Below are positions 14,986 to 42,300 of a stretch of DNA of 64,000 nt, piece after piece. How positions within the stretch are numbered: the first letter of the stretch is position 1; the number at the start of each line of letters is the position of its first letter. The translations under genes were made by a program, and so were the position numbers. The notes under the pieces are model-generated. The model made no database searches. It was not told the origin of the DNA and saw nothing but the letters and a program-made list of their open reading frames with translations. This DNA is from Clavelina lepadiformis (taxonomy: Eukaryota > Chordata > Ascidiacea > Aplousobranchia > Clavelinidae), in assembly GCF_947623445.1 (NCBI RefSeq), contig NC_135248.1, forward strand, positions 1,426,001 through 1,490,000, read 5' to 3'.

Positions 14986-15351
14986 AAATTCGGCGTACAC
15001 ATTGATAAACCTCGTGCATAAAGCTGCCACACTTCCTACTATGGCCAATCAGATGATTTCTGTAGCATGTTTTGATGTAGCCGTTCAGTAACTCAGTATT
15101 TGCAGGTTCTAAGAATTATGTATTTTTATTGAATCTTTCAGTTTGTGTTGATCACAGGAGCTGGTGCAATAATAGGTAGTTTGTTTCGTTGTTTGATGTT
15201 TATAGATTGAGTTTATCGCATGTATGCTTTACATTGGCTACTTATTAAATCAGTAACTGCTCTTCATTGCAAAGTACGTTTATGAAGTTAAAGAAGCATC
15301 TGTTACTTGAAACCTTTGTTGCTTTTTATCAGGTTAGGGATGCATTAAACC

Positions 15352-16104
15352 ATGGAAACTGTCGTAATAGCTGCAGTAAGTATTTTAGCAGTGGTCTTCA
15401 TCGCGTCTTTTGGAAGTTTAATTTTTATCTGCTATCAGAAGTACAAACAAAAACGGCAATCCTTACTTGCGGACGATGGAAGCAACTTGAGCCAAACAGT
15501 ATTAATGTTTGACGACACTGCAGTTGATAATTCGTCTAGCAATTTGGAATTGGGAGCTGTAATAACTTGTGATGACGGAACGATTCGCCAGTTATTGGAG
15601 ACAGAAGCTTGGGCCAATGATGTCCATGGTGTCATTCCCCATTGTATTGGAATTCTCAAGATGTGCCGAGAAGTCACCGAGAAACTTCTGACCGTTGCCA
15701 TGGATAGAAATCAAAAAAATATCCACCCATCTCACATGTCTGAGATAGTGATTGTAGCAAAGTGTATTTCACCTCGTGTGGATGATGTGATGCGTTCAAT
15801 CTCTCCTCCAATTGACGCCGAACATCTCGAAGCAAGATCAGCGGCATTAATTTACTCAGTACAGCATCTTGCTTTGCTCGTGCGTAATGCTTGGCAATCA
15901 CCAACTTCCCTAGACTGGATCGACGCTGCTCTGGATAACATGTCTCAACATCTAAAGATCCTGCGAAGTGCAAACCTCAATAATCTTCCCGAACCTGATG
16001 CCATGAAAACAGCCCAAGAAGATACTGATAATGATAGCAAGCTGGATGACGACAATCTCGATACACTGCAACCACCAACAAGCCAAGAAAGTTCCCAACT
16101 TTAA
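15352..16104 (+). CDS. TMEM98: Transmembrane protein 98 (TMEM98)
   Basis: A single uninterrupted frame of 250 aa; human TMEM98 is 226 aa. It begins METVVIAAVSILAVVF like its homologues, with one signal-anchor segment at about residues 5-27 and a basic stop-transfer (KYKQKRQ). A globular region follows, with the family stretches PHCIGILKMC, KCISPRVDDVMRSI, SPPIDAEHLEARSAAL and LDWIDAAL. In vertebrates TMEM98 is an ER membrane protein that binds the transcription factor MYRF and blocks its self-cleavage. The C-terminal 40 residues are an acidic, polar extension without homology that I know. The start is preceded by TTTTTATCAG followed by a short leader, which could be a cis or spliced-leader acceptor. 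AATAAA follows at 16205-16210. Its 3' end faces LIN28. Confidence 0.95.
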   Translation: METVVIAAVSILAVVFIASFGSLIFICYQKYKQKRQSLLADDGSNLSQTVLMFDDTAVDNSSSNLELGAVITCDDGTIRQLLETEAWANDVHGVIPHCIGILKMCREVTEKLLTVAMDRNQKNIHPSHMSEIVIVAKCISPRVDDVMRSISPPIDAEHLEARSAALIYSVQHLALLVRNAWQSPTSLDWIDAALDNMSQHLKILRSANLNNLPEPDAMKTAQEDTDNDSKLDDDNLDTLQPPTSQESSQL

Positions 16105-16985: not shown

Positions 16986-16991
16986 TTTATT
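16986..16991 (-). terminator. Candidate distal LIN28 poly(A) signal
   Basis: AATAAA on the minus strand, about 965 bp beyond the LIN28 stop. A proximal AATAAA is at 17315-17310. The let-7 8-mer at 17058-17065 lies between the two, so choice of poly(A) site would decide whether it is in the mRNA. Six-base signals occur often by chance in AT-rich DNA. Confidence 0.3.
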
Positions 16992-17057
16992 GACACAAGA
17001 ATTTATATGCAAGAGAAAAATCCATGCAAATATGACATTACCCCAAATACTGTTGTT

Positions 17058-17065
17058 TGAGGTAG
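17058..17065 (-). promoter_or_regulatory. let-7 8-mer seed match, distal LIN28 3' UTR
   Basis: The minus strand reads CTACCTCA, a perfect match to let-7 nucleotides 1-8. It lies about 890 bp downstream of the LIN28 stop and is in the transcript only if the distal poly(A) site is used. Confidence 0.45.
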
Positions 17066-17910
17066 CACGTGAAGTTTAAAAGAATGTACACCTGGAGCAA
17101 TCACTACCACGCCTCCACAATAAACCTGTATATGGTGCTTAAAAGAGACGGTGCAAAAACGTAGCACCCTACAAAAAGTACAAGTATGCCTGAGCTAGTT
17201 TGAAAATGTGTTCTGCAAAATAGCACATTTTGGGAAGGACCTTTGTACAGCATAGCGCTTTGCCAGCGCTAAGGAGAACAAAAGTTGTTTTCAGGCAGTG
17301 CATATGCAATTTATTCAGAGCCCTAAATTTTTTAAATGAAGGTCAGCAATTAAACAATTAGGCAACCGTGTTAAAATCAATGGTAATTTCTACAGTTGCC
17401 ATACAAATATGATAACTTTTCAAGTTACAGAACACAATTGTTTTGGTTTAGCTAATACAGAATTTAGCGACCATGCAGTCTTGGAAGGTACGTTCCCTGA
17501 GAGACGAAGAGCAGCAGAGTACGGTAACTGACAAAGACATGGTTTTCCAAACTTGGCATCAAACAAAACATGTAACAAAAGTCTACGTTGGAGACAAATA
17601 TTAAAACTATAAACTCCGCTTAACAACGGCGAAGTGGACGTTAAAATGCATCGACTGAGAGTACTTTAGCAAGTTCAAATTTTTCCACTGGAATATTAAT
17701 TCATATAACCCCTCGCCAAGTGTGACTACAAAAAATTCATTACAACAGTTACTCACAGATATGTTTTCGCTACACACTGTATAAAGTGATACACATCCGT
17801 ACATTACTTTAACGTTGTTCGTCTTTCACGCTGAACAGCATACAGTAAAAGTAATGAACACGCTCGTCTTTTAATTGCTGTGCGCTCGGCGCGTCTTATA
17901 GAAAAAGGGT

Positions 17911-17917
17911 TGAGGTA
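17911..17917 (-). promoter_or_regulatory. let-7 7-mer site with 3' pairing, LIN28 3' UTR
   Basis: The minus strand reads AACCTGCGTACCTCA about 40 bp after the LIN28 stop. TACCTCA pairs with let-7 nucleotides 1-7, and AACCT can pair with let-7 nucleotides 10-14 after a small internal loop. This is the classic seed-plus-supplementary layout. Pairing is worked out by hand against the canonical let-7 sequence. Confidence 0.6.
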
Positions 17918-17953
17918 CGCAGGTTTTGAGGCTAAAAATACTCCGGAGGTAAG

Positions 17954-20900
17954 TTATTGGGCTGAGGTAGAAACTGGCGAGTGTTCAGGTGCTCTGCTGC
18001 TGGCTGATCGCTCTGAATCAGCCGATTCACCGCGGGAGCTGCTATCCCGTTTCACGGGGCAATCGATGACTAGGTGCTCGACCGATTTGCAGTGATGACA
18101 CCGCTTTGGAAGAGGTGGATAGTGGCACTCTTTGGCGTGATGACCGGCTTCTTGACAGTTGAAACATCTAATAATAAAAATAATAACATGCTAAACCACT
18201 TCTGAAGTAATCAGTAATCATTCAACTAATGTAGACGAGACAAAACTCTGATAAGAAAAGTTTGATTGAAATCATTCTGCTAGAGGGCGTACGCGGTTTA
18301 AAATGAAAGACATGTTGATCACGGCACATGATACTTACAAGCAAGGTTGATAGTTTCAGAGCCAAATATCACAGAGTTTTTAAAAATAGCCAGGCTTCGA
18401 AACTAATAAATTTCTTTTTTCGCTGTGTTAGCTACTTGTGCGAATTTAGGATAATTACAGTATGACTTAAGAAAAATCATCCCTCAGAGCATTGCCGCTT
18501 TTTCCTGTTCGTGGATTGTCTTTTTTGACCAGTCGACAGGGAGGTTAACACCATACTTTTCGCTTCCCACAGTAAAAAATAAGTAATACTACTGCTAATT
18601 TGACAACTTTTACATCGCTGCTTGTTTAGCTCTGTAGTTGACTATTCCTCTTCCCTATCGGCATTATGTCTAGCCCGAGTGGTTGCCAAGCCGGTTCACG
18701 AGCATTTACCTGAGTTTGGAACACAAAGTGGACATTTCAGCTGGAATTCGTACAACTGTTTTCCCCACACTGCCACTCGCAACAGCATAATATACCACGG
18801 TGCAATATACCGTAATAAGCCAGCTTTTTCAACTACAAATGGAAATGCCACTCTCAGGAATTTTCGTTGTTGCCCTATGGGCTTCATAAGCTACCAGTAT
18901 TAGTAACTTGAAAATAGTTACTTTGATGCAAAAATAACCTACTTCGCGTGTAAGCCTCCAAGAAAATTGATCTCGTTTCGGGCTTTTAAGAGCCATCTTA
19001 TAAGTTTATAGATTAAACAATTTAGCTTTTTTTCAAAGTAAGATTTGGCTTTGAGAGAAATTATTTTTCAACCACCCCTACTATTTACTACTAACTACTA
19101 TTACTATACTTACCAGCTATTTCATTTAGTCAACTATAGGCTTACTGTGTTTTAAGCATAATCTAAGACACACTTCGCGAGACTGTAATAACGAACGCCA
19201 GCCAGTGTGTTTCTCTGCCGAAAGAGATCAGCGGAGTAGCTAGTACTAGTAGCCTCCCAACATTCTTGCGACTTCAATTACTAATTACGATAGCAAACTT
19301 TCGATCGCAATTCTGGCATGGCGTGGGATTGCGTTGTTGTAGAAAAGAAAGGATTTTTTAAAATTTTAGCTGTAAACCACGGCCCGTTACTTTCCGTCAA
19401 CATTTTACTGGTCTGTACGCGTAAAAACGGTAAAAACCGCTATGATTAGTCTTGGTTTTATTGAGTTTGTAATGGAATGGTTGATTTATCGTTACTTATC
19501 CTGTAAGGATGATCACTTCAATTACAATGTTTGTCTGTTGAATTGTAGTCCTCGATAATAAATGAGTCTCAGGTCGTTGTTTCGCTTCTCTTAATCTTAG
19601 AATCAATTGTACACCTCGACAACTGTATAATCTGGTTATATTGAAGTTTCATTGAACGAATAAATCAAGATAGAACATTGTGACAGCAACAGCACAAAGA
19701 CATGTTGCGGCGTTGAACGTAGAAACCAAAAGGGGCTTAATAAATCAAAATGCACGCACAGTAAGAGGGAAGCATCGATTACGTCACGCAGTGTTATGCT
19801 TCGCTGATTCGATAGACGAGAATTCTATGTCGTACACAATTTTATATTATATTAATTGATATATTTATCACAAGTTAAATGACATGACAAATTTTATTTT
19901 ACTTTGGCAGCCATTTTACCGGAAAAAATGGAGCAGTCGAATCTGATTTTTACAGTTCCTTATTAACCTAAATTAAATCTTATAACATTATACAGTAGTA
20001 ACTTTTCGCTTACCTAACCTAAATCTAACTCCAACAAAACCTTAAATCAACTTTTTACATACCCATTCTCCTAATGGCCTAACCTAACCGCCTATCTTTA
20101 ACAATGGGCTACGCCACCTACATATGATGAAATAGTCACTTCGTTATTTTTATGCATGACATGATTTTAGCTGCGTGTTTTTTTTTCTGGAAGTACTTTG
20201 TGTCACTCCATGATAAATAAAGCAACGGGTAAAGGACGTCAGTAGGGAAAGTTCAATACTACACGACCAGTCTTGACAATAGCCTGTAACTGCTATATGC
20301 TTCAGTAACAGCCTTGCTTTTTCAACTGGAGATTTGTTGGAAAATTAGCGTAGTTTGCTTGAAACGAGCTCTACAACATGTGGAGAAAGAAAGTAAACAC
20401 AGCGGAAACAGAAGAGCAGTCGCAAGGTAGTTAAAGTTTAATAAGTTTAGTTTAAGTTAAGAGTTTAATGGGCGGAATTGACTCATTGGGAATTTGAGCG
20501 ACATAGGCATATTGGCCATTTACCAAGATCCCTTGCGAAAGACATCGCTGAAGAATTGGCCGCCAAAAGTCGCCCGGGCTTTCTGAAGCAGACGTGCAGA
20601 TCTACTGTGGTCAGTGGGTCTCGGTTAAATGGTCTGCGCTCCAGTCGTCTTGTAACTAATCACGACTACTTCACCCTTCATTAACAGCTGTAGTCTACTG
20701 GGACCGTACTCTTTACCTATACTTGTGGTAACCAATCACCGTCATAACCAGTTCAGTAGCCTAAGTAGGCTCGCTTACCTGTCCGGTCTTTTCTTTCTCT
20801 TTGGCTTTCGTTCGCTTCCCTGACAATTTCCGCCATCAGCTCCGCAAACCTTATGTGCCTCGAGCCCTAATGAGGAAGTCTTGTACCAGATCGTTACTTT

Positions 20901-23900
20901 TTCTCCTTCTCCCAGACTCCGAAAGCCGGACATCTGAATCACGGACTATAAAACAAAGCAAAAAAAAGTCAAGCCAAAGTGTAGGCCTACAGAGTACTCA
21001 ACGTGAAACAAAACTTGCATCATAAAAATATTGAACAGATCTAGCCTACCCTGCCAGAAAAATAAGCGGCCAACAAGTTTCCAGGAACTACTATTAGGTA
21101 GGCATAGTTAGGCTAATACTGTATTTAATCTAAACTTTAGAAAAATTGTATGATTATGCATGTACATTTAAAACCACAACATAAGGAAAATATCAAGAAC
21201 CTTTTCCTAAATTTTACTTTGCCTGATGCCTTCTACAAAGTAGAACTTAATTGTTAGTTTTTCTGAAAGGAGATTATCAATTCCTATAACAAAGTACCTT
21301 GTAGCTAAGTAATGAGCATGTTGAAACCCATGTTTGATGTTGTAATGTTTGCCAACTGTTAGGCGTTTGTTGTAATTTAGAAGTTTTTTCAGAAAAGAAC
21401 TGTGTAGACTCCATCAATTTTATTTTTAATTTGTTACATGATCGACGGAAAATGGTCATGTGAGTCATCTTATATATACTTTTTGTGTTGATTCATGGCG
21501 AAGTGTTCGACTAGCACGATCCTGAAACAGGAAACCCTTAGAAGTATTGCTTGTTTTACTACAGGCCTGAAATCATCACCGTTGAAAGTCCAGTCGTTTG
21601 CGGTCACGCATCGTCAACGCTCCACCACGTGGTCACGACATGACGGGCGTCCATTTTTTTTGCCAGAGCTGGCCTGTAATTCGTAAAGGAATGCGAAATC
21701 CCAGCTTTGATTGTTCAATTATATGTCAACAAATAGAGATTTTTGCGGTTTAAATGATTTAAACGGAAAAAAATAATAATCGGTTTCATGATTTTGATGC
21801 TCAAGTGCTTCGAACGAAATTTCTTTGATCAAGATGTTCATCTGTCAGTTGCTAGAAATGCAGGTCAGCACGCACACCACTAATACTATCTGACGACGCG
21901 ATTAACTGCACAACGGGGAAATACGTTTCGTCTAATAATGTCCATCATTCACTAAATATACTCGTTTTGAGGTCAGTGGCCTACACGCAATGCAATTAAG
22001 GATGTTGTCCAAAGGATATCCCTGTGCTAAAGTCCAGTAGTCAGCCAAATAAACTGGGCCATTGTTATGACACTGTGCCAATTTTCAAAAACGGACTAAT
22101 CAGCGATGGCAACAAGAAGGAAAGCAAACATCCAATTTCAAAGAGGTTTAAGTTTGGAGAACTGCCTTGGCAGGTATCAACTTTCTTTGGTAGAGCCTAC
22201 TGTAGCGTTTTTTCCCATAATAGCCTTATGTGTCACGGAAAACTTTTGCATAGCGAGTTCCCTTGAACACAGGCAATTGTACTGTTGTAAAATTACTGTT
22301 TTGTTGCTGCACTTCAATCCAAATGCATTCGGTTGAAACAATATGCGTACAAACTACTAACGATGATTTGTTCATATATTTTGCAGCTGCTGGAAATGCA
22401 GGTCAGCACCACTAGAGCTATCTGACAACGCGATTAAGGGCAAAACGGGTGAAATCTTACAATGAAAGCACATTTAAGGTTTCCATAAAAATTATTTTAA
22501 AACGTGCAAAAATAAAAGGTACTTAAGTACAATGTTTTCAATCGTACATTTCTCATCAGCATGATATCAATCAAAATCTTTTTTCTAAAACGAATTACCA
22601 AGAATTATTGCGGTCGTGTTTTTTTAATTATCTGTTCATCAAACAAAAGCGGCTTTGCATAAATCTATCTCTAAAATCTCGCGCGTTTTCTTTGTGACGT
22701 CATCGTAGTGGTGCGCTGCAGGTATTCTCTCGGGTGATTGTCCGCTTTGTAGTGGTGGCACGAAGGGCGTGAGCTGAATACTTACGGCGAGGCTAATACG
22801 ACTATTCTTGGACGCCCGCGGCCCTGCGAGCTTGGATTAGAATGTTATGAATGGACACACAAGGTCCACAAGTCAAAGCACTACTTTTCAGCATGCCACT
22901 TAAAAACTAGAATACGTTTAAATGGTCTAATAACGGAGAGTAAAGTGACCAGCAGCAGTTCAAAAATTGCTTGTCACCCACGAATAGCAACTCTAAATTT
23001 GACATCTTGGCCGTTTTAAAAATTTGTTCCGCAACTTTTGCCTATTTTTCTTCTATTTTTTTGTACTTAATTTGCCAAAGGGTAGATGCACATTAAAAAA
23101 GGCTTGATTTACTTTATTCTACAAAGCACAACTTCACCGTACTTTCTGGACAAAATTCTAAGCGGAACTGACCTGGTAAACAAAGATATCTTTTTCTTCG
23201 TCATCGTCATCATCGGCCCTGTCTGGGGTAACGAACCCGTAACCCTTCGCAGAGTTAAACCACTTGCATGTGCCTAAATAGTTAACAAAATGCAAGCATA
23301 AATGTGGGTGAGCGTTAAAATTCGTGCTGTCTAGGCAAATTATCACAGATCACACCAGAAAAGCGGCACACAAGTTTATACAAAAATATTGTTAACATTT
23401 GGAAAAAGTATAAATAAGATCGTTATAGTTCTTACGGCAAACAACAGGGCTGTAGCTGTTTATTGGTTTCACGCTAACCGATATCGGCATTAAGTGTTAA
23501 GTATTTCTTGTTGAAAGCACTTAACAATATCTCCAAAAGTTTCGCAATGTAACGCTGTTTGTGAATGATTGCGGGGCCCTATAGCTATGAAATATAGAAA
23601 TTAGTGATTTAATCAAAAGTTGTCGTCAACTACAGTGACACTGGAACGAATGAATAAGATTCGCTTTGTAACGAAATGACATGAGACCGCCATTTTGGCG
23701 TCACCGTTGGCGACAAATTATGTTTAAATTATCAGTGCAGTGGCACTTCTTCCCCGCGATGATGGCGGGGAAGGAATGAAACACACATGAATGTGTTCAT
23801 CAGAAATAACTCTTGAATTTTCGATATTGACACGTTACAGAGAGACCATTAGTGATTCACAAAACAAGGTTTATGACTCACCAAATCTCCTACAAAGCCC

Positions 23901-26900
23901 CTCCACATCTCCACTGTCCTCGCGTGGTAGAGACTGGCCGTTTTCGTTATCTTTTTCACTTCTGTTTGGGCTCTCGTCGTTGGTCGATTCTGAAAAGCAT
24001 GAAGTTTTACAATGTATTGGTAATAATCGATTCAAACCGCTTACTTGGAAAACAAGCCCAGAAAATTTCCATTCAAGCCGCTTTATCAGCTACTATGTAT
24101 CAGGCTGCATTCAGCGCCCTTTCACATAAGGGGCTGTCCCTTGCAAGATTCAATTTAAGATTTAGTAAAAAGGTCACGAGATATTCGTGAGTTCAAACTA
24201 CGTTACGTCAACTATAAATTACCGATACAATAAACACTAGCGGCGATGATTCACCATTTACCGGATATGTGTGATGTTAATTAATTAGTGAAAAACAACG
24301 CTGTTATTGTCACGTATGTTGAATTTTTGTGGGTGAAATTTAAATTATCTGGATGCGAAGGTCTTGTCGTGTTTGCTGTAGTCAACAACAAACTATACTG
24401 TGTTGTTGTTGTTTACAAAACGGAAACATAGGCCTACTGGTGGATTGTTGCAGTTTTTTATTTTCAGAATATAAGAGTTTTACTTCACAAAGCATCGCTA
24501 AATTGCAAGTGTTTCAGGTTTTTACTAGTTTTATTTGAGTGTACAAACACTCAAGGAACGTGGTCCAGGCGAAAGCTAAAGTGCTGATGTCTCAGGTTCG
24601 GGTATTCGGCATTAGATTTCTCATGGCAAGTTAATTAAATGTTTTTGGGCCATCGCGCACTACCACAGAAATTAATAGGTCACACACAACGCTGAAAAGG
24701 CATTTTGCCGAAATTCAATCAGATCCACCGATAGGTTAAAATATGTAAGCTGCCACTTTTCTCAAATTTAGGCTTTGCTGACAACCGCCATAGATAAGAA
24801 TCGCACTTATGACAATTTCTTCGATCTATTCCGACAACCTGTTCAAACTACTGATTACGGTATTACCAAGCTATGAAAGAAATTACATTTTAATAGATAC
24901 TAATGAGAAGAGCAATGATGTTTTTACATAACTTCTCAAAAACAACGTGTTTGATCTGCAGGGCGTGCTCTGCCGAATACCATATTACGAGTCATATCAC
25001 AAGGCCCGTGATCATAATGTGGCAGCAGTAGAAAAAACAAACACACAGCGTCAATTAAATTTCTTTTAAATTAGCCTGTTGTAATATTTCAAAGAACGAC
25101 AAAGAGAAAGCCATGAGATAAAATTAAAATATATAACGAGCAATAACTTCCTTGAAATTTAAAAGCGCATATTTCAGTGAAATTAAATTCCTTTACTCTT
25201 ATTTTTAAAGTAAATTTGGAATAAGTAAAGTTCTAGTCCATTAATCAAGCAGTTTCTTGTAGCCAGGAACCTAGTTTACTATAAAACCTGGGTGGGGACA
25301 AACTTGGTGTGGTATGCATTGGAAGTTACAGAATACACTTCCAATTGTGATAAACTACGATATAATTGTTCAAAAGCTGAAGGGGACTTGTACACCACAC
25401 CTCTCAAAACAAATCCTTTTTTGTAGCAATGTTCTACTTTCTTGAATTGGAGCAAAAGTATTAAAATAAAAGTTACTAAACAATTTAAAACTTTAATTGT
25501 CAAAGTTGATGAAAAAGTTGAAATTGGAAGTTTATAGACTGGCAACGGATTAGGTAAACGCAAAATGCTTGAATAAAAACCTGTTAATTCTATGAATGAC
25601 GCTTCTGAGTTCTGCGCTTTTCACAAGGAAATTGATTGTGCAAGGCACAAAAACAGCCCTTTAAATTTTACTTTACCTGATAATTAATTTCTATTGGAAA
25701 TTAAGTTATTCAATTTTCCAGAAGGTCGTCGATAATAATTTTGTATAATGGCTGATAAAAAAAATAATGCTACAGTTTTAAAAGAACAAGCAGTCCCAGA
25801 ATGTAAATAAAAAGATTAAATGTGGACATGGCCAAGAGCTATCGATACATTTCTTGCCAGCATTAGCTAAGTTGGCTAAATACAGCTTCAAACCGGTCAA
25901 CAACAGCAACTTTTGCTTCAGAATAACAAGGCAGAAACAGAATTTAACGCGATCGCTACACTTGGTTAGTGAGTCACCTGTATATCTAGGTCAAGTACCG
26001 AATTTCAAAAATAAAAATTATTTTCTTTTACCATTTGCAGTTAAAAGTCATTCACGAATTTATAAGAGGTTATGTAAAATGTAAATATTATATCCAAGCA
26101 AAAAATAAATCCAGAAATATCATTTCTCAAACAACTTGACTTTTTCCTTAATTTCCCATTAAACCATGAAGCAGAATATCATGCTTTTGATAACCCAGCG
26201 GTTTCTTGCCTCAAAAACTGAACGAACCAACGGGTCCCAACCTTAATTCCAACGATGCAATAAGAATTCCAAATAAGTATTCTAGGCGATTTTAAATCAG
26301 TTTATAATACTAACGTCCAAACTAACCTACCCAGCACGGCCACAAATTTATCGGGAAACTTTGGAATTATCGAGAAAGTTCTCATTTTTATCAGATTATC
26401 TTTTATGCGTTGGGATTTCTGTATAATTGTACCGCTGGGTTCTCGTTACAACGGCTAAGAAAGCATGTGACGCAAGGATAAAAATTTATTTGACTCTTTT
26501 CGGAGTGAACAGACCACTTGCAAGTAAAAATGACGTCATAAACACTAGGGTGAGGAAACCTTTTAAAACTTGATTGATTGCCTCTTCATAAATCAACTTT
26601 TACTTTGCTTTACAAATTGGAAAATTACAATCGCAACTTTTTACAAGGCAAAGTGGTGTACAAAAGCGACCAGTAACAGTTTACCCTATATAGGCACAGT
26701 AGTGAAGACGTGAAAAACGTTTCTCGAATTGAAGAAATTATGTAAGATTTAAATCTAAAAACCTAAGCTGGCAGCAGGTTAAAACCTGAACCAAAACCCA
26801 AAAACCTGCTGCTACCCTGCAAAAACAATTGTATATTTATCATATGTAAAACAACTTGCAAAATGACAGTCGGGTGGACGCACGTAAAAAGCAGTGATCA

Positions 26901-39385: not shown

Positions 39386-42300
39386 TTAATACGACGAGGG
39401 TAACTTACAGCTGGCTGGTCGACTCTGTAGTTGCTGGAAGAGCTGATCCTGGCTGAATTTGACGAATGCATCATATTGCTCTGTAAGGAGAAAAAACACT
39501 GTCTTTTTATCCTCACTAAAGCAAAATAGCAATGAACAAAGAGTGTTTGTTGAAACTGAAGTTGATCATTAAATGAGTATTAAGACGCAACTGGTCATTA
39601 ACATGAAAGACACTGTGTTTAATTGTTAAGCAACAGGCAATAATGTGGTAGCAGTTTTGGAAATGTGGTTTAATCTCAACTATGAAAGACAACGCTGCTT
39701 ACCCGCGGAATAAGATGGCTGTATTAATGCGTTGTTTACTTTCAAAATGTAAAACAAGGTATAAAAAGTTGATTCACTAGAGACTAGACTACTAAATGGC
39801 GCCGGTGATGACAGAATGTCCGAAAGAGACAGTTAAACACTTTTTAACATATTTACTCTTATACTGATTACAAAACATGGTGAAACACTAGCCCCGTTTA
39901 AACACGTGACTGATGAATATCACTAAAAGACACCAAACATATGGACATACCAGAGAGTTTATCAATTAAAGCTTTCTCAAATTCAGAACGTAGTCTGTCT
40001 TCTTGTTCCTTTAAAAGACGTTCACAGATGATTCCAGCCTGGATAATAAATAGCAGTAACAAACTAAGCGAAATGTAAAACATTCGTGAATTCATACACG
40101 GCATCTACGCTACTGGATTGACAATACGTTGTGATTATATACAGCACATCTTTAAGCAGATACGGACAAAAATGAATTGCTGCAACCAACCTGTTTCATG
40201 GAAAGTAGTGGGCTGTCTACATTTTGCTTTCCTTGAATAACAACGGAGCTGGAGCATTTTGGGTCAAGTGACACTGACGGCAGTGGTTGGATTGGCCGGG
40301 ATTGGTTAGCTGAAATATTAACGTAAGTTTTTTCTTTGAATGAGAGAATTAGGACTTCATATTGATTTCACTTCTAAGTTGTGACTTTTGAGTTTGGCTG
40401 CTGACTTCAGATTTTGCTAATGATGTAAATGCAAGCGTTGGATAAAGTATGACGCCACACTGATGAGATTGTGACGCCATAGAACTTGCCTGTTGTTATA
40501 ACACAGTACAAGCATCTCACTACTACGAATAGAGTTTGCTTTTCACTATGACGCCGACTGTACCATACGGCCTGCAGTGCACATGGCTGCAGAAAAGTGT
40601 GAGATTAACATAAATTTATGTACCTACCTCAGGTGCCTATCTCGTCTGTAAGAATAAAAACGAAATGGTTGCACTTCACACAAAGAGCAAAGCCTTACTT
40701 AGACGATTATACCATGACGCAGTTGCTAAGGGCTGACAATTGAAATTATCCAGGCAAGGTTTTATCCATTCTGGCCAAATCACAACGCATTTAGTGGAAT
40801 TGTTGAGAGTGTGGTTACCATGATCGACGTTGTTGATTTGGTATAAGAAAAAATGATTTCCCGGACAGTAACAAAATTAAACATTTTAATGCTATGTATG
40901 TTGAAATCGTGTTTAGAGAGAAATAAAAAAATACAAGACCTGTCGAAAGCTATGAAATGAAATGACTGTGTGTTCAAATTGAAATGATAAAATACAAAAC
41001 ACATTTAATTGGAGGCGAAGATGAGCATTACCAGAAAATTTTACATGGATGGAAATTTGCATTCAGTTGTGACAAAATACCAGGACGAACAACAATGGAC
41101 AAAAAAACTTTTTTGCAAGTGACTTGGCAAATCAATTTCCAAAAATCTTTTTTTCTAAAACTGCATTTGCAAATTGAGTAATCCTTGGCATAGAATTAAA
41201 ATAGTTCATCCAGAGGCCACATATATTTACATGATAGGCACGTGTAATACATCAATATAGGCTATGCGTCAAGCTATCAATCAAAGACGTACTTTACACC
41301 AGTGGCCTAATCTTCTGTTATACAATGTCTTCCCCGAAATTTATGTTCAGGAGGTTTTTAGGTCATATAACAAAATAAAGAGTTGTTGATAATGATTTTT
41401 TGAGACCATATCACCCACATTGTTAAGTGGGTAAACGTTCAGAATCAACAGTGTACTTCTGAGATGCCTGCTTCCTACAACTGAACCTGTGACAACTGTG
41501 GTAAGAATGCCATACTCCCAATTATGCAAACTGAGTTCGATTCGGTGGGGCTCTGTTATTGTTGTAATGCCCTTGGGCAACGCATTAATGAAGCTCGCTC
41601 CAGTTCAGTGCTGCTGGTGGACAGTTCCCAATTAGAGCAACACCCCAAATACCTAAAAAACCAAATCAATCGGAAAATGCACATTAACTAGCTCTGTAAT
41701 CGAGACCTAAACGGAAATCATCACCGAGTTAGTTGTGAAAATGTTTTCCCAACCTGAGAACAAAGTTCCCGATACAGTGTGATACATTCATGGATGACAA
41801 CCCACTTTCAAATGATCGATAATTTGAACTTTAGCTTAACTATTTGATTCGATAAAACAAGTTAAAAGAACCTTTATGAATAAAGAAAAACTCAAAACCT
41901 CACCAGCGGTTAGATGAGAAGCAGCTTCAGCAAACATCGTGCTGCTGCTTGGTGACATTGGAGGGCTGTTGGCAGCTTGCAATTGACGCCTTTTCTTCAT
42001 TCGACGGTATTCTTGGTAGATATGTTTAACAATTTGTTCTACACATAGCATAATATAATGGGATCAATGTGAAAAATGTATACAGTACTATATTATTTTT
42101 TTTATTATAATGTTTTTATAATGCCAGTGTGATTAAACTAACAACCTTCAGAACAAGAGAAGAGACACACGCAAGCAAAGAAAAACATACATCAAAAGCA
42201 ATGCATGGATAGATTGACCTAAGTAATTGAGTATAAATCGATGTAAGTTAATAGATGAAGTGATGTAAAAGTGTACTATATGCCCTTGACAACACCAAGG

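What the first reader, a model, noticed from the sequence alone, without database searches (positions are those of the whole stretch)
17058..17970. let-7 seed matches clustered at the 3' end of LIN28
On the LIN28 strand there are two perfect 8-mers CTACCTCA (17963-17970, in the last codons, and 17058-17065) and one 7-mer TACCTCA (17911-17917) that can also pair with let-7 nucleotides 10-14. A given 8-mer is expected about once per 65 kb per strand in random sequence, so two within 0.9 kb on the correct strand of LIN28 is unlikely by chance. It implies the double-negative LIN28/let-7 loop known from nematodes and vertebrates exists here, with one site inside the coding sequence.
Basis: partly seen in the sequence, partly recalled or inferred. 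Interest (0 to 1): 0.8.

Follow-up and report, generated by a model that had tools for sequence, protein, structure and literature searches.

The report
let-7 and miR-125 sites in tunicate LIN28

Summary
On the minus strand CTACCTCA lies at 17970-17963 (in the LIN28 coding sequence, ending two codons before the stop) and 17065-17058; the 7mer-A1 lies at 17917-17911. LIN28 is real, one hit in the genome. Two let-7 8mers in a 1.2 kb terminal exon are over 100 times the expectation; 0 of 4418 overlapping background windows had two.

Of 53 distinct seeds recalled by me, only let-7 and miR-125 have an 8mer in this exon. The genome has six let-7 hairpins and a mir-1473/let-7/miR-125 cluster; GGAG, the LIN28-binding motif, is in five of six let-7 loops. 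TRIM71/LIN-41, the classic let-7 target, has four let-7 7mers within 0.2 kb.

Best reading: a conserved LIN28/let-7/miR-125 circuit; target side well supported by sequence, function and conservation untested. The distal 8mer may be lost by proximal polyadenylation and is predicted inaccessible. New member of a known kind.

The parts
23882..23989 (-). Probable LIN28 exon for an acidic N-terminal part (phase-compatible; the exon with the start codon was not found)
   Evidence: CAG| acceptor, |GTGAGT donor, joined frame runs open into the cold-shock exon; inferred
23173..23273 (-). LIN28 exon, first part of the cold-shock domain
   Evidence: translation; Pfam CSD; PDB LIN28A
20779..20945 (-). LIN28 exon, rest of the cold-shock domain and linker
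17954..18167 (-). LIN28 terminal exon, coding part with two CCHC zinc knuckles and C-terminal tail, stop TAA 17956-17954
   Evidence: only hit of its 43-aa knuckle query in the genome
17963..17970 (-). let-7 8mer CTACCTCA inside the coding sequence, ending 6 bases before the stop codon
   Evidence: no 3' pairing beyond shuffles, mean unpaired 0.45
17911..17917 (-). let-7 7mer-A1 TACCTCA with pairing of let-7 bases 1-16 around one bulged target base
   Evidence: predicted accessible (mean unpaired 0.80)
17494..17501 (-). miR-125/lin-4 8mer CTCAGGGA, the only copy in the window
   Evidence: duplex -16.5 kcal/mol, mean unpaired 0.38
17310..17315 (-). proximal poly(A) signal AATAAA
   Evidence: use not shown
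17058..17065 (-). let-7 8mer CTACCTCA, distal 3' UTR
   Evidence: predicted mostly paired locally (mean unpaired 0.10)
16986..16991 (-). distal poly(A) signal AATAAA; the 3' UTR includes the distal let-7 site only if cleavage is here or further on
   Evidence: use not shown

Best explanation
These are real microRNA response elements in the last exon of the LIN28 gene of an ascidian tunicate (most likely Clavelina lepadiformis). let-7 family miRNAs and miR-125 load into Argonaute, pair with the 3' end of LIN28 mRNA and lower its translation and stability as they rise in development. LIN28 protein in turn is expected to bind GGAG in the loop of pre-let-7, recruit a TUT4/7-type uridylyltransferase and send the precursor to DIS3L2, closing a double-negative loop. 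Shown by sequence: the gene, the sites, the miRNA hairpins, the motif, family hits for effector genes. Inferred: expression, 3' end, repression, LIN28 binding. The 3' UTR 7mer with extended pairing and the miR-125 8mer are the likeliest working sites; the coding 8mer is probably weak (sites under translating ribosomes usually are, recalled) and the distal 8mer works only if the distal poly(A) site is used and its local structure opens.
For: Two let-7 8mers, one 7mer-A1 and one miR-125 8mer within 1.2 kb; Poisson product about 2e-7 to 5e-7 for the 8mers by three background rates, one of them with a pseudo-count of 0.5 for miR-125; 0 of 20000 Markov sequences with both; 0 of 4418 overlapping background windows with even one let-7 8mer plus one miR-125 8mer. 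Of 53 distinct recalled seeds only let-7 (2) and miR-125 (1) have 8mers there. None in three LIN28 introns or on the antisense strand. Six let-7 hairpins with seed GAGGTAG and a mir-1473/let-7/miR-125 cluster; GGAG in 5 of 6 let-7 loops. LIN28 domains. DIS3L2 C-terminal and TUTase family hits. Positive control: TRIM71 (PDB TRIM71, 3.5e-122) has four let-7 7mers at +1139 to +1308 after its stop, against at most 2 sites for any other of 53 seeds.
Against: No conservation test: no second tunicate genome is held. The 3' end is not mapped; AATAAA at 17315 would drop the 17058 site. That site is predicted to be paired locally (0.10 unpaired) and the coding and miR-125 sites to be partly paired (0.45, 0.38). 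The coding and distal 8mers have no 3' pairing clearly beyond shuffles. The 17911 pairing is matched or beaten by 4 of 38 other sampled let-7 sites by best of six let-7s. Only 1 of 6 let-7 hairpins passes the Rfam gathering score, and Rfam does not call the miR-125 hairpin at E <= 0.5. One upstream LIN28 coding exon also holds a miR-125 7mer-A1, so weak matches do occur by chance. The miR-125 site was seen by eye first and counted afterwards, and the seed list is from recall. No expression data.
Confidence: 0.78

Rival explanations
1. Chance: the 8mers are accidental, the coding one produced by a serine/threonine-rich tail, the distal one outside the mRNA; LIN28 is not a let-7 target in this animal.
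For: The distal site lies after a proximal AATAAA and is predicted inaccessible; the coding site has no 3' pairing beyond chance. Window-wide, CTACCTCA is not enriched (6 of 100 shuffles reach 3).
Against: [quoted passage not shown] joint chance about 2e-7 to 5e-7; 0 of 4418 overlapping background windows with two let-7 8mers; a third let-7 site with 16 paired bases lies between the stop and the proximal AATAAA.
Confidence: 0.12
2. One-way regulation: let-7 and miR-125 repress LIN28, but LIN28 does not block let-7 here, so there is no double-negative loop.
For: No binding or expression data; GGAG is missing in 1 of 6 let-7 loops; GGAG is only four bases and is part of the Rfam let-7 consensus, so it may be kept for other reasons; the TUTase hit covers only positions 54-107 of 138 of its family.
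Against: LIN28 keeps the cold-shock domain and both zinc knuckles; 5 of 6 loops keep GGAG; family hits for TUT4/7-type and DIS3L2 genes over their cut-offs.
Confidence: 0.2
3. Only the proximal isoform is made; miR-125 and the 17911 let-7 site do the work, and the distal 8mer is outside the mRNA.
For: AATAAA at 17315 followed by a U-rich stretch; the proximal isoform still holds one let-7 8mer, one 7mer-A1 and the miR-125 8mer.
Against: A second AATAAA at 16991 lies 67 bases after the distal site, and both may be used.
Confidence: 0.35

Closest known systems
Vertebrate LIN28A/LIN28B - let-7 - miR-125 circuit
   Same: LIN28 with cold-shock domain and two CCHC knuckles, let-7 and miR-125 sites at the 3' end, GGAG in let-7 loops, TUT4/7- and DIS3L2-type family hits. 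[quoted passage not shown] let-7/LIN28B and miR-125/LIN28 pairs are predicted as conserved in bilaterians (PMC2833159, passages).
   Different: One LIN28 hit in the genome; a let-7 8mer in the last codons; six let-7 hairpins found, in two clusters; nothing tested functionally.
C. elegans lin-28 / lin-4 / let-7 heterochronic pathway
   Same: Same three players; lin-4 (the miR-125 relative) represses lin-28 (PMC3916362 and PMC2833159, passages).
   Different: Direct let-7 regulation of lin-28 is described as subtle in the worm (PMC2833159, passage); site positions were not compared, since no worm sequence is held.
lin-41/TRIM71 let-7 sites
   Same: The LIN28 site at 17911 pairs let-7 through base 16 with one bulged target base, in the manner of worm lin-41 sites (comparison recalled); TRIM71 of this genome has its own let-7 cluster.
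   Different: The TRIM71 sites here are 7mers: two 7mer-m8 and two 7mer-A1 before its AATAAA, a third 7mer-A1 13 bases after it.

Membership tests
LIN28 protein family | Cold-shock domain followed by paired CCHC zinc knuckles | tested here: met
   Pfam CSD 58.9 bits, zf-CCHC 32.0, Lin-28A-like second knuckle 31.4, each over its cut-off; best PDB hits are LIN28A, 6.7e-39
let-7 microRNA family | Hairpin with GAGGUAG seed on the 5' arm matching the Rfam let-7 model | tested here: met
   1 of 6 hairpins over the gathering score (66.6 against 53.5 bits), 5 of 6 below it (47.3, 41.2, 40.9, 32.3, 30.8); the six fold with 0 to 2 of 200 shuffles as good
miR-125/lin-4 family | Mature UCCCUGAGACCCUAA in a hairpin beside let-7 | tested here: inconclusive
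   Sequence and hairpin present (1 of 200 shuffles folds as well); Rfam does not call it at E <= 0.5; identity to miR-125 is from recall
LIN28/let-7 double-negative loop | let-7 seed sites in the LIN28 mRNA | tested here: met
   Two 8mers, one 7mer-A1, unlikely by chance; that all lie in the mRNA is not shown
LIN28/let-7 double-negative loop | GGAG LIN28-binding motif in pre-let-7 loops | tested here: met
   5 of 6 hairpins; the sixth reads GAAG
LIN28/let-7 double-negative loop | TUT4/7-type uridylyltransferase and DIS3L2 present | tested here: met
   PF17877 61.2 bits, positions 1-73 of 87; PF19088 44.7 bits, positions 54-107 of 138; both over cut-off; the genes were not read further
LIN28/let-7 double-negative loop | Reciprocal expression and repression in both directions | not testable with these tools
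   no expression or binding data held
LIN28/let-7 double-negative loop | Sites conserved in related species | not testable with these tools
   the genome search states that this genome has no relatives held

The most novel reading that the evidence does not exclude
In tunicates the complete LIN28 / let-7 / miR-125 switch, including LIN-41, predates the split from vertebrates, and this animal has tuned it: LIN28 is hit by let-7 both in the last codons and at a bulged site whose long pairing fits the animal's own diverged let-7 copy (GGUUUU where the Rfam consensus has GGUUGU), with alternative polyadenylation adding or removing the distal 8mer. In a colonial, budding ascidian such a switch could gate stem-cell behaviour.
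Probability: 0.25. Interest if true: 0.5.

Novelty: new member of a known kind. Interest (0 to 1): 0.4.

Why it matters
[quoted passage not shown] Finding let-7 and miR-125 sites together in LIN28, let-7 sites in TRIM71 and the LIN28-binding motif in let-7 loops in one tunicate genome gives a concrete, testable case that the timing switch was in the chordate ancestor. In the listings of two searches of the open-licence PMC library (20 of 34 papers listed; 4 of 4) no title or abstract start reported LIN28 as a let-7 target in a tunicate; the papers were not read for it, except passages of one, and most subscription papers are not covered. It fills a gap rather than overturning anything.

Tried and rejected
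RF00104 (mir-10) finds nothing in the genome and rang in no control, so absence of miR-10/100 is not shown. The window itself holds no Rfam family at gathering score and no tRNA. The idea that all three let-7 sites have strong 3' pairing failed: only 17911 does, and against the 39 let-7 sites in the window and L028-L047 it ranks 5th by best of six let-7s and 2nd for the copy L005:3685. The idea that every site is accessible failed for 17058 (0.10 unpaired). The listing (15 of 370 papers) showed nothing on invertebrate LIN28 sites; that (12 of 2180) nothing with mir-1473. The other NHL clusters were not compared with the PDB, so a second TRIM71-like gene is not excluded. TMEM98 identity of the neighbouring gene rests on a Pfam GCIP_C match below cut-off (25.1 against 36.2 bits) and recall. 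A first LIN28 exon with the start codon was not found.

Full report
What was checked. On the minus strand CTACCTCA occurs at 17970-17963 and 17065-17058 and TACCTCA, without the C, at 17917-17911. The first is in frame near the end of LIN28 (TCT ACC TCA GCC CAA TAA), ending 6 bases before the stop at 17956-17954; the others are downstream of it.

The gene. The reading frame on the minus strand is LIN28: cold-shock domain, CCHC knuckle and the LIN28-specific second knuckle each pass their Pfam cut-offs, and the best solved relatives are LIN28A (6.7e-39). A query with both knuckles hits one place in the genome. Four exons join in one open frame: 23989-23882 (inferred), 23273-23173, 20945-20779, 18167-17954. 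A neighbouring gene on the plus strand (ORF ending 16104) converges on it.

The genome. The window is part of a genome of 209.1 Mb in 95 contigs. The six contigs C1 to C6, 28.78, 26.53, 25.73, 25.07, 24.62 and 20.77 Mb, agree within about 0.01 Mb with chromosomes 1 to 6 of Clavelina lepadiformis (28.79, 26.54, 25.74, 25.07, 24.62, 20.77; PMC10884593, passages); the paper gives 210.1 Mb in 102 scaffolds, so the held copy is slightly smaller. A mir-1473 match, a family named for Ciona robusta and at least one other tunicate (PMC5399378, passages), agrees. The window is then probably chromosome 9, 1,426,001-1,490,000.

More than chance. In 19 background stretches of the same genome (190 kb) CTACCTCA occurs 4 times and CTCAGGGA 2 times on the two strands together. 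The terminal exon to the distal AATAAA (1199 bases) should hold 0.013 let-7 8mers and holds 2; P about 8e-5, or about 4e-5 with two other background rates. Of 4418 overlapping background windows of that length none has two let-7 8mers and one has three or more let-7 7/8mers. Of 20000 first-order Markov sequences of the exon 3 have two or more.

CTCAGGGA, the miR-125/lin-4 8mer, occurs once in the window, at 17501-17494 on the LIN28 strand, about 450 bases after the stop codon. I saw it by eye in the sequence and then counted it. Among 53 distinct seeds recalled by me only let-7 and miR-125 have an 8mer in this exon. The two are known LIN28 regulators (PMC3916362, PMC2833159, passages). Chance for both together is about 2e-7 to 5e-7 if the counts are independent; 0 of 20000 Markov sequences have both. 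Three LIN28 introns and the antisense strand hold no let-7 or miR-125 7mer or 8mer; of three upstream coding exons one holds a miR-125 7mer-A1.

The miRNAs. Five let-7 hairpins lie in tandem on C2 (L005) and a sixth in a mir-1473/let-7/miR-125 cluster (L006). All six have GAGGTAG; one passes the Rfam gathering score, five do not. The eight hairpins tested (six let-7, miR-125, mir-1473) fold with 0 to 2 of 200 shuffles as good. Rfam does not call the miR-125 hairpin at E <= 0.5; its name rests on the recalled mature sequence. The mir-1473 match (50.2 bits) is below that family's cut-off of 95.

Positive control. TRIM71/LIN-41, found through its NHL repeats and confirmed against solved TRIM71, has let-7 7mers at +1139, +1164, +1216 and +1308 after its stop, before an AATAAA at +1754, and a fifth at +1767; no other of 53 seeds has more than two sites in the 1790 bases counted. 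So let-7 targeting of its oldest partner is visible in this genome by the same method.

How good are the sites. The 17911 site pairs let-7 L005:3685 bases 1-16 around one bulged base (-22.0 kcal/mol, 0 of 300 shuffles) and is predicted open (0.80 unpaired); three of six let-7 copies pair better than 98% of shuffles there, three do not. Four of the 38 other sampled let-7 sites pair better by best of six copies. The coding 8mer and the distal 8mer have no 3' pairing clearly beyond shuffles, and the distal one is predicted closed (0.10). AATAAA occurs at 17315 and 16991; the proximal isoform keeps one let-7 8mer, the 7mer and miR-125.

The other arm. GGAG, bound by the LIN28 knuckles (recalled; a paper on LIN28 and GGAGA motifs is in the reference list of PMC4742387), is in 5 of 6 let-7 loops; the sixth reads GAAG. 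Family hits for DIS3L2 and a TUT4/7-type TUTase (partial) are present. These make the loop possible; they do not show it.

Verdict. The target side of the loop is well supported by sequence; the loop as a whole is likely but untested, and conservation could not be tested here. It is a known kind of circuit in a lineage where the listings of two searches showed no report of it.

Noticed in passing
L006:5253-5333 (minus), C2:5648253-5648333: A mir-1473-like hairpin (50.2 bits, below the family's cut-off of 95) sits in the place of miR-100 upstream of let-7 and miR-125; its arm matches recalled miR-100 at 14 of 22 positions (3 of 10000 shuffles reach that). Tunicate mir-1473 may be a diverged miR-100 with a new seed.
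   Followed up: partly
L005:3458-4380 (minus), C2:15328458-15329380: Five tandem let-7 hairpins in 0.9 kb with diverging loops and 3' halves; Halocynthia has four within 1 kb of one scaffold (PMC5399378 table passage).
   Followed up: partly
L028 (C4:16672001-16682000), minus, 1139-1308 bases after the TRIM71 stop: Four let-7 7mers clustered in the TRIM71/LIN-41 3' UTR.
   Followed up: yes
40624-40631 (+): Third CTACCTCA of the window, not assigned to a gene.
   Followed up: no
15349-16104 (+): 250-aa open frame, probably TMEM98 (recalled; weak Pfam match below cut-off), converging on LIN28; the two 3' UTRs may overlap.
   Followed up: partly
17040-17150 (-): Local predicted structure that pairs the distal let-7 8mer; the stretch also holds a GGAG.
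   Followed up: no
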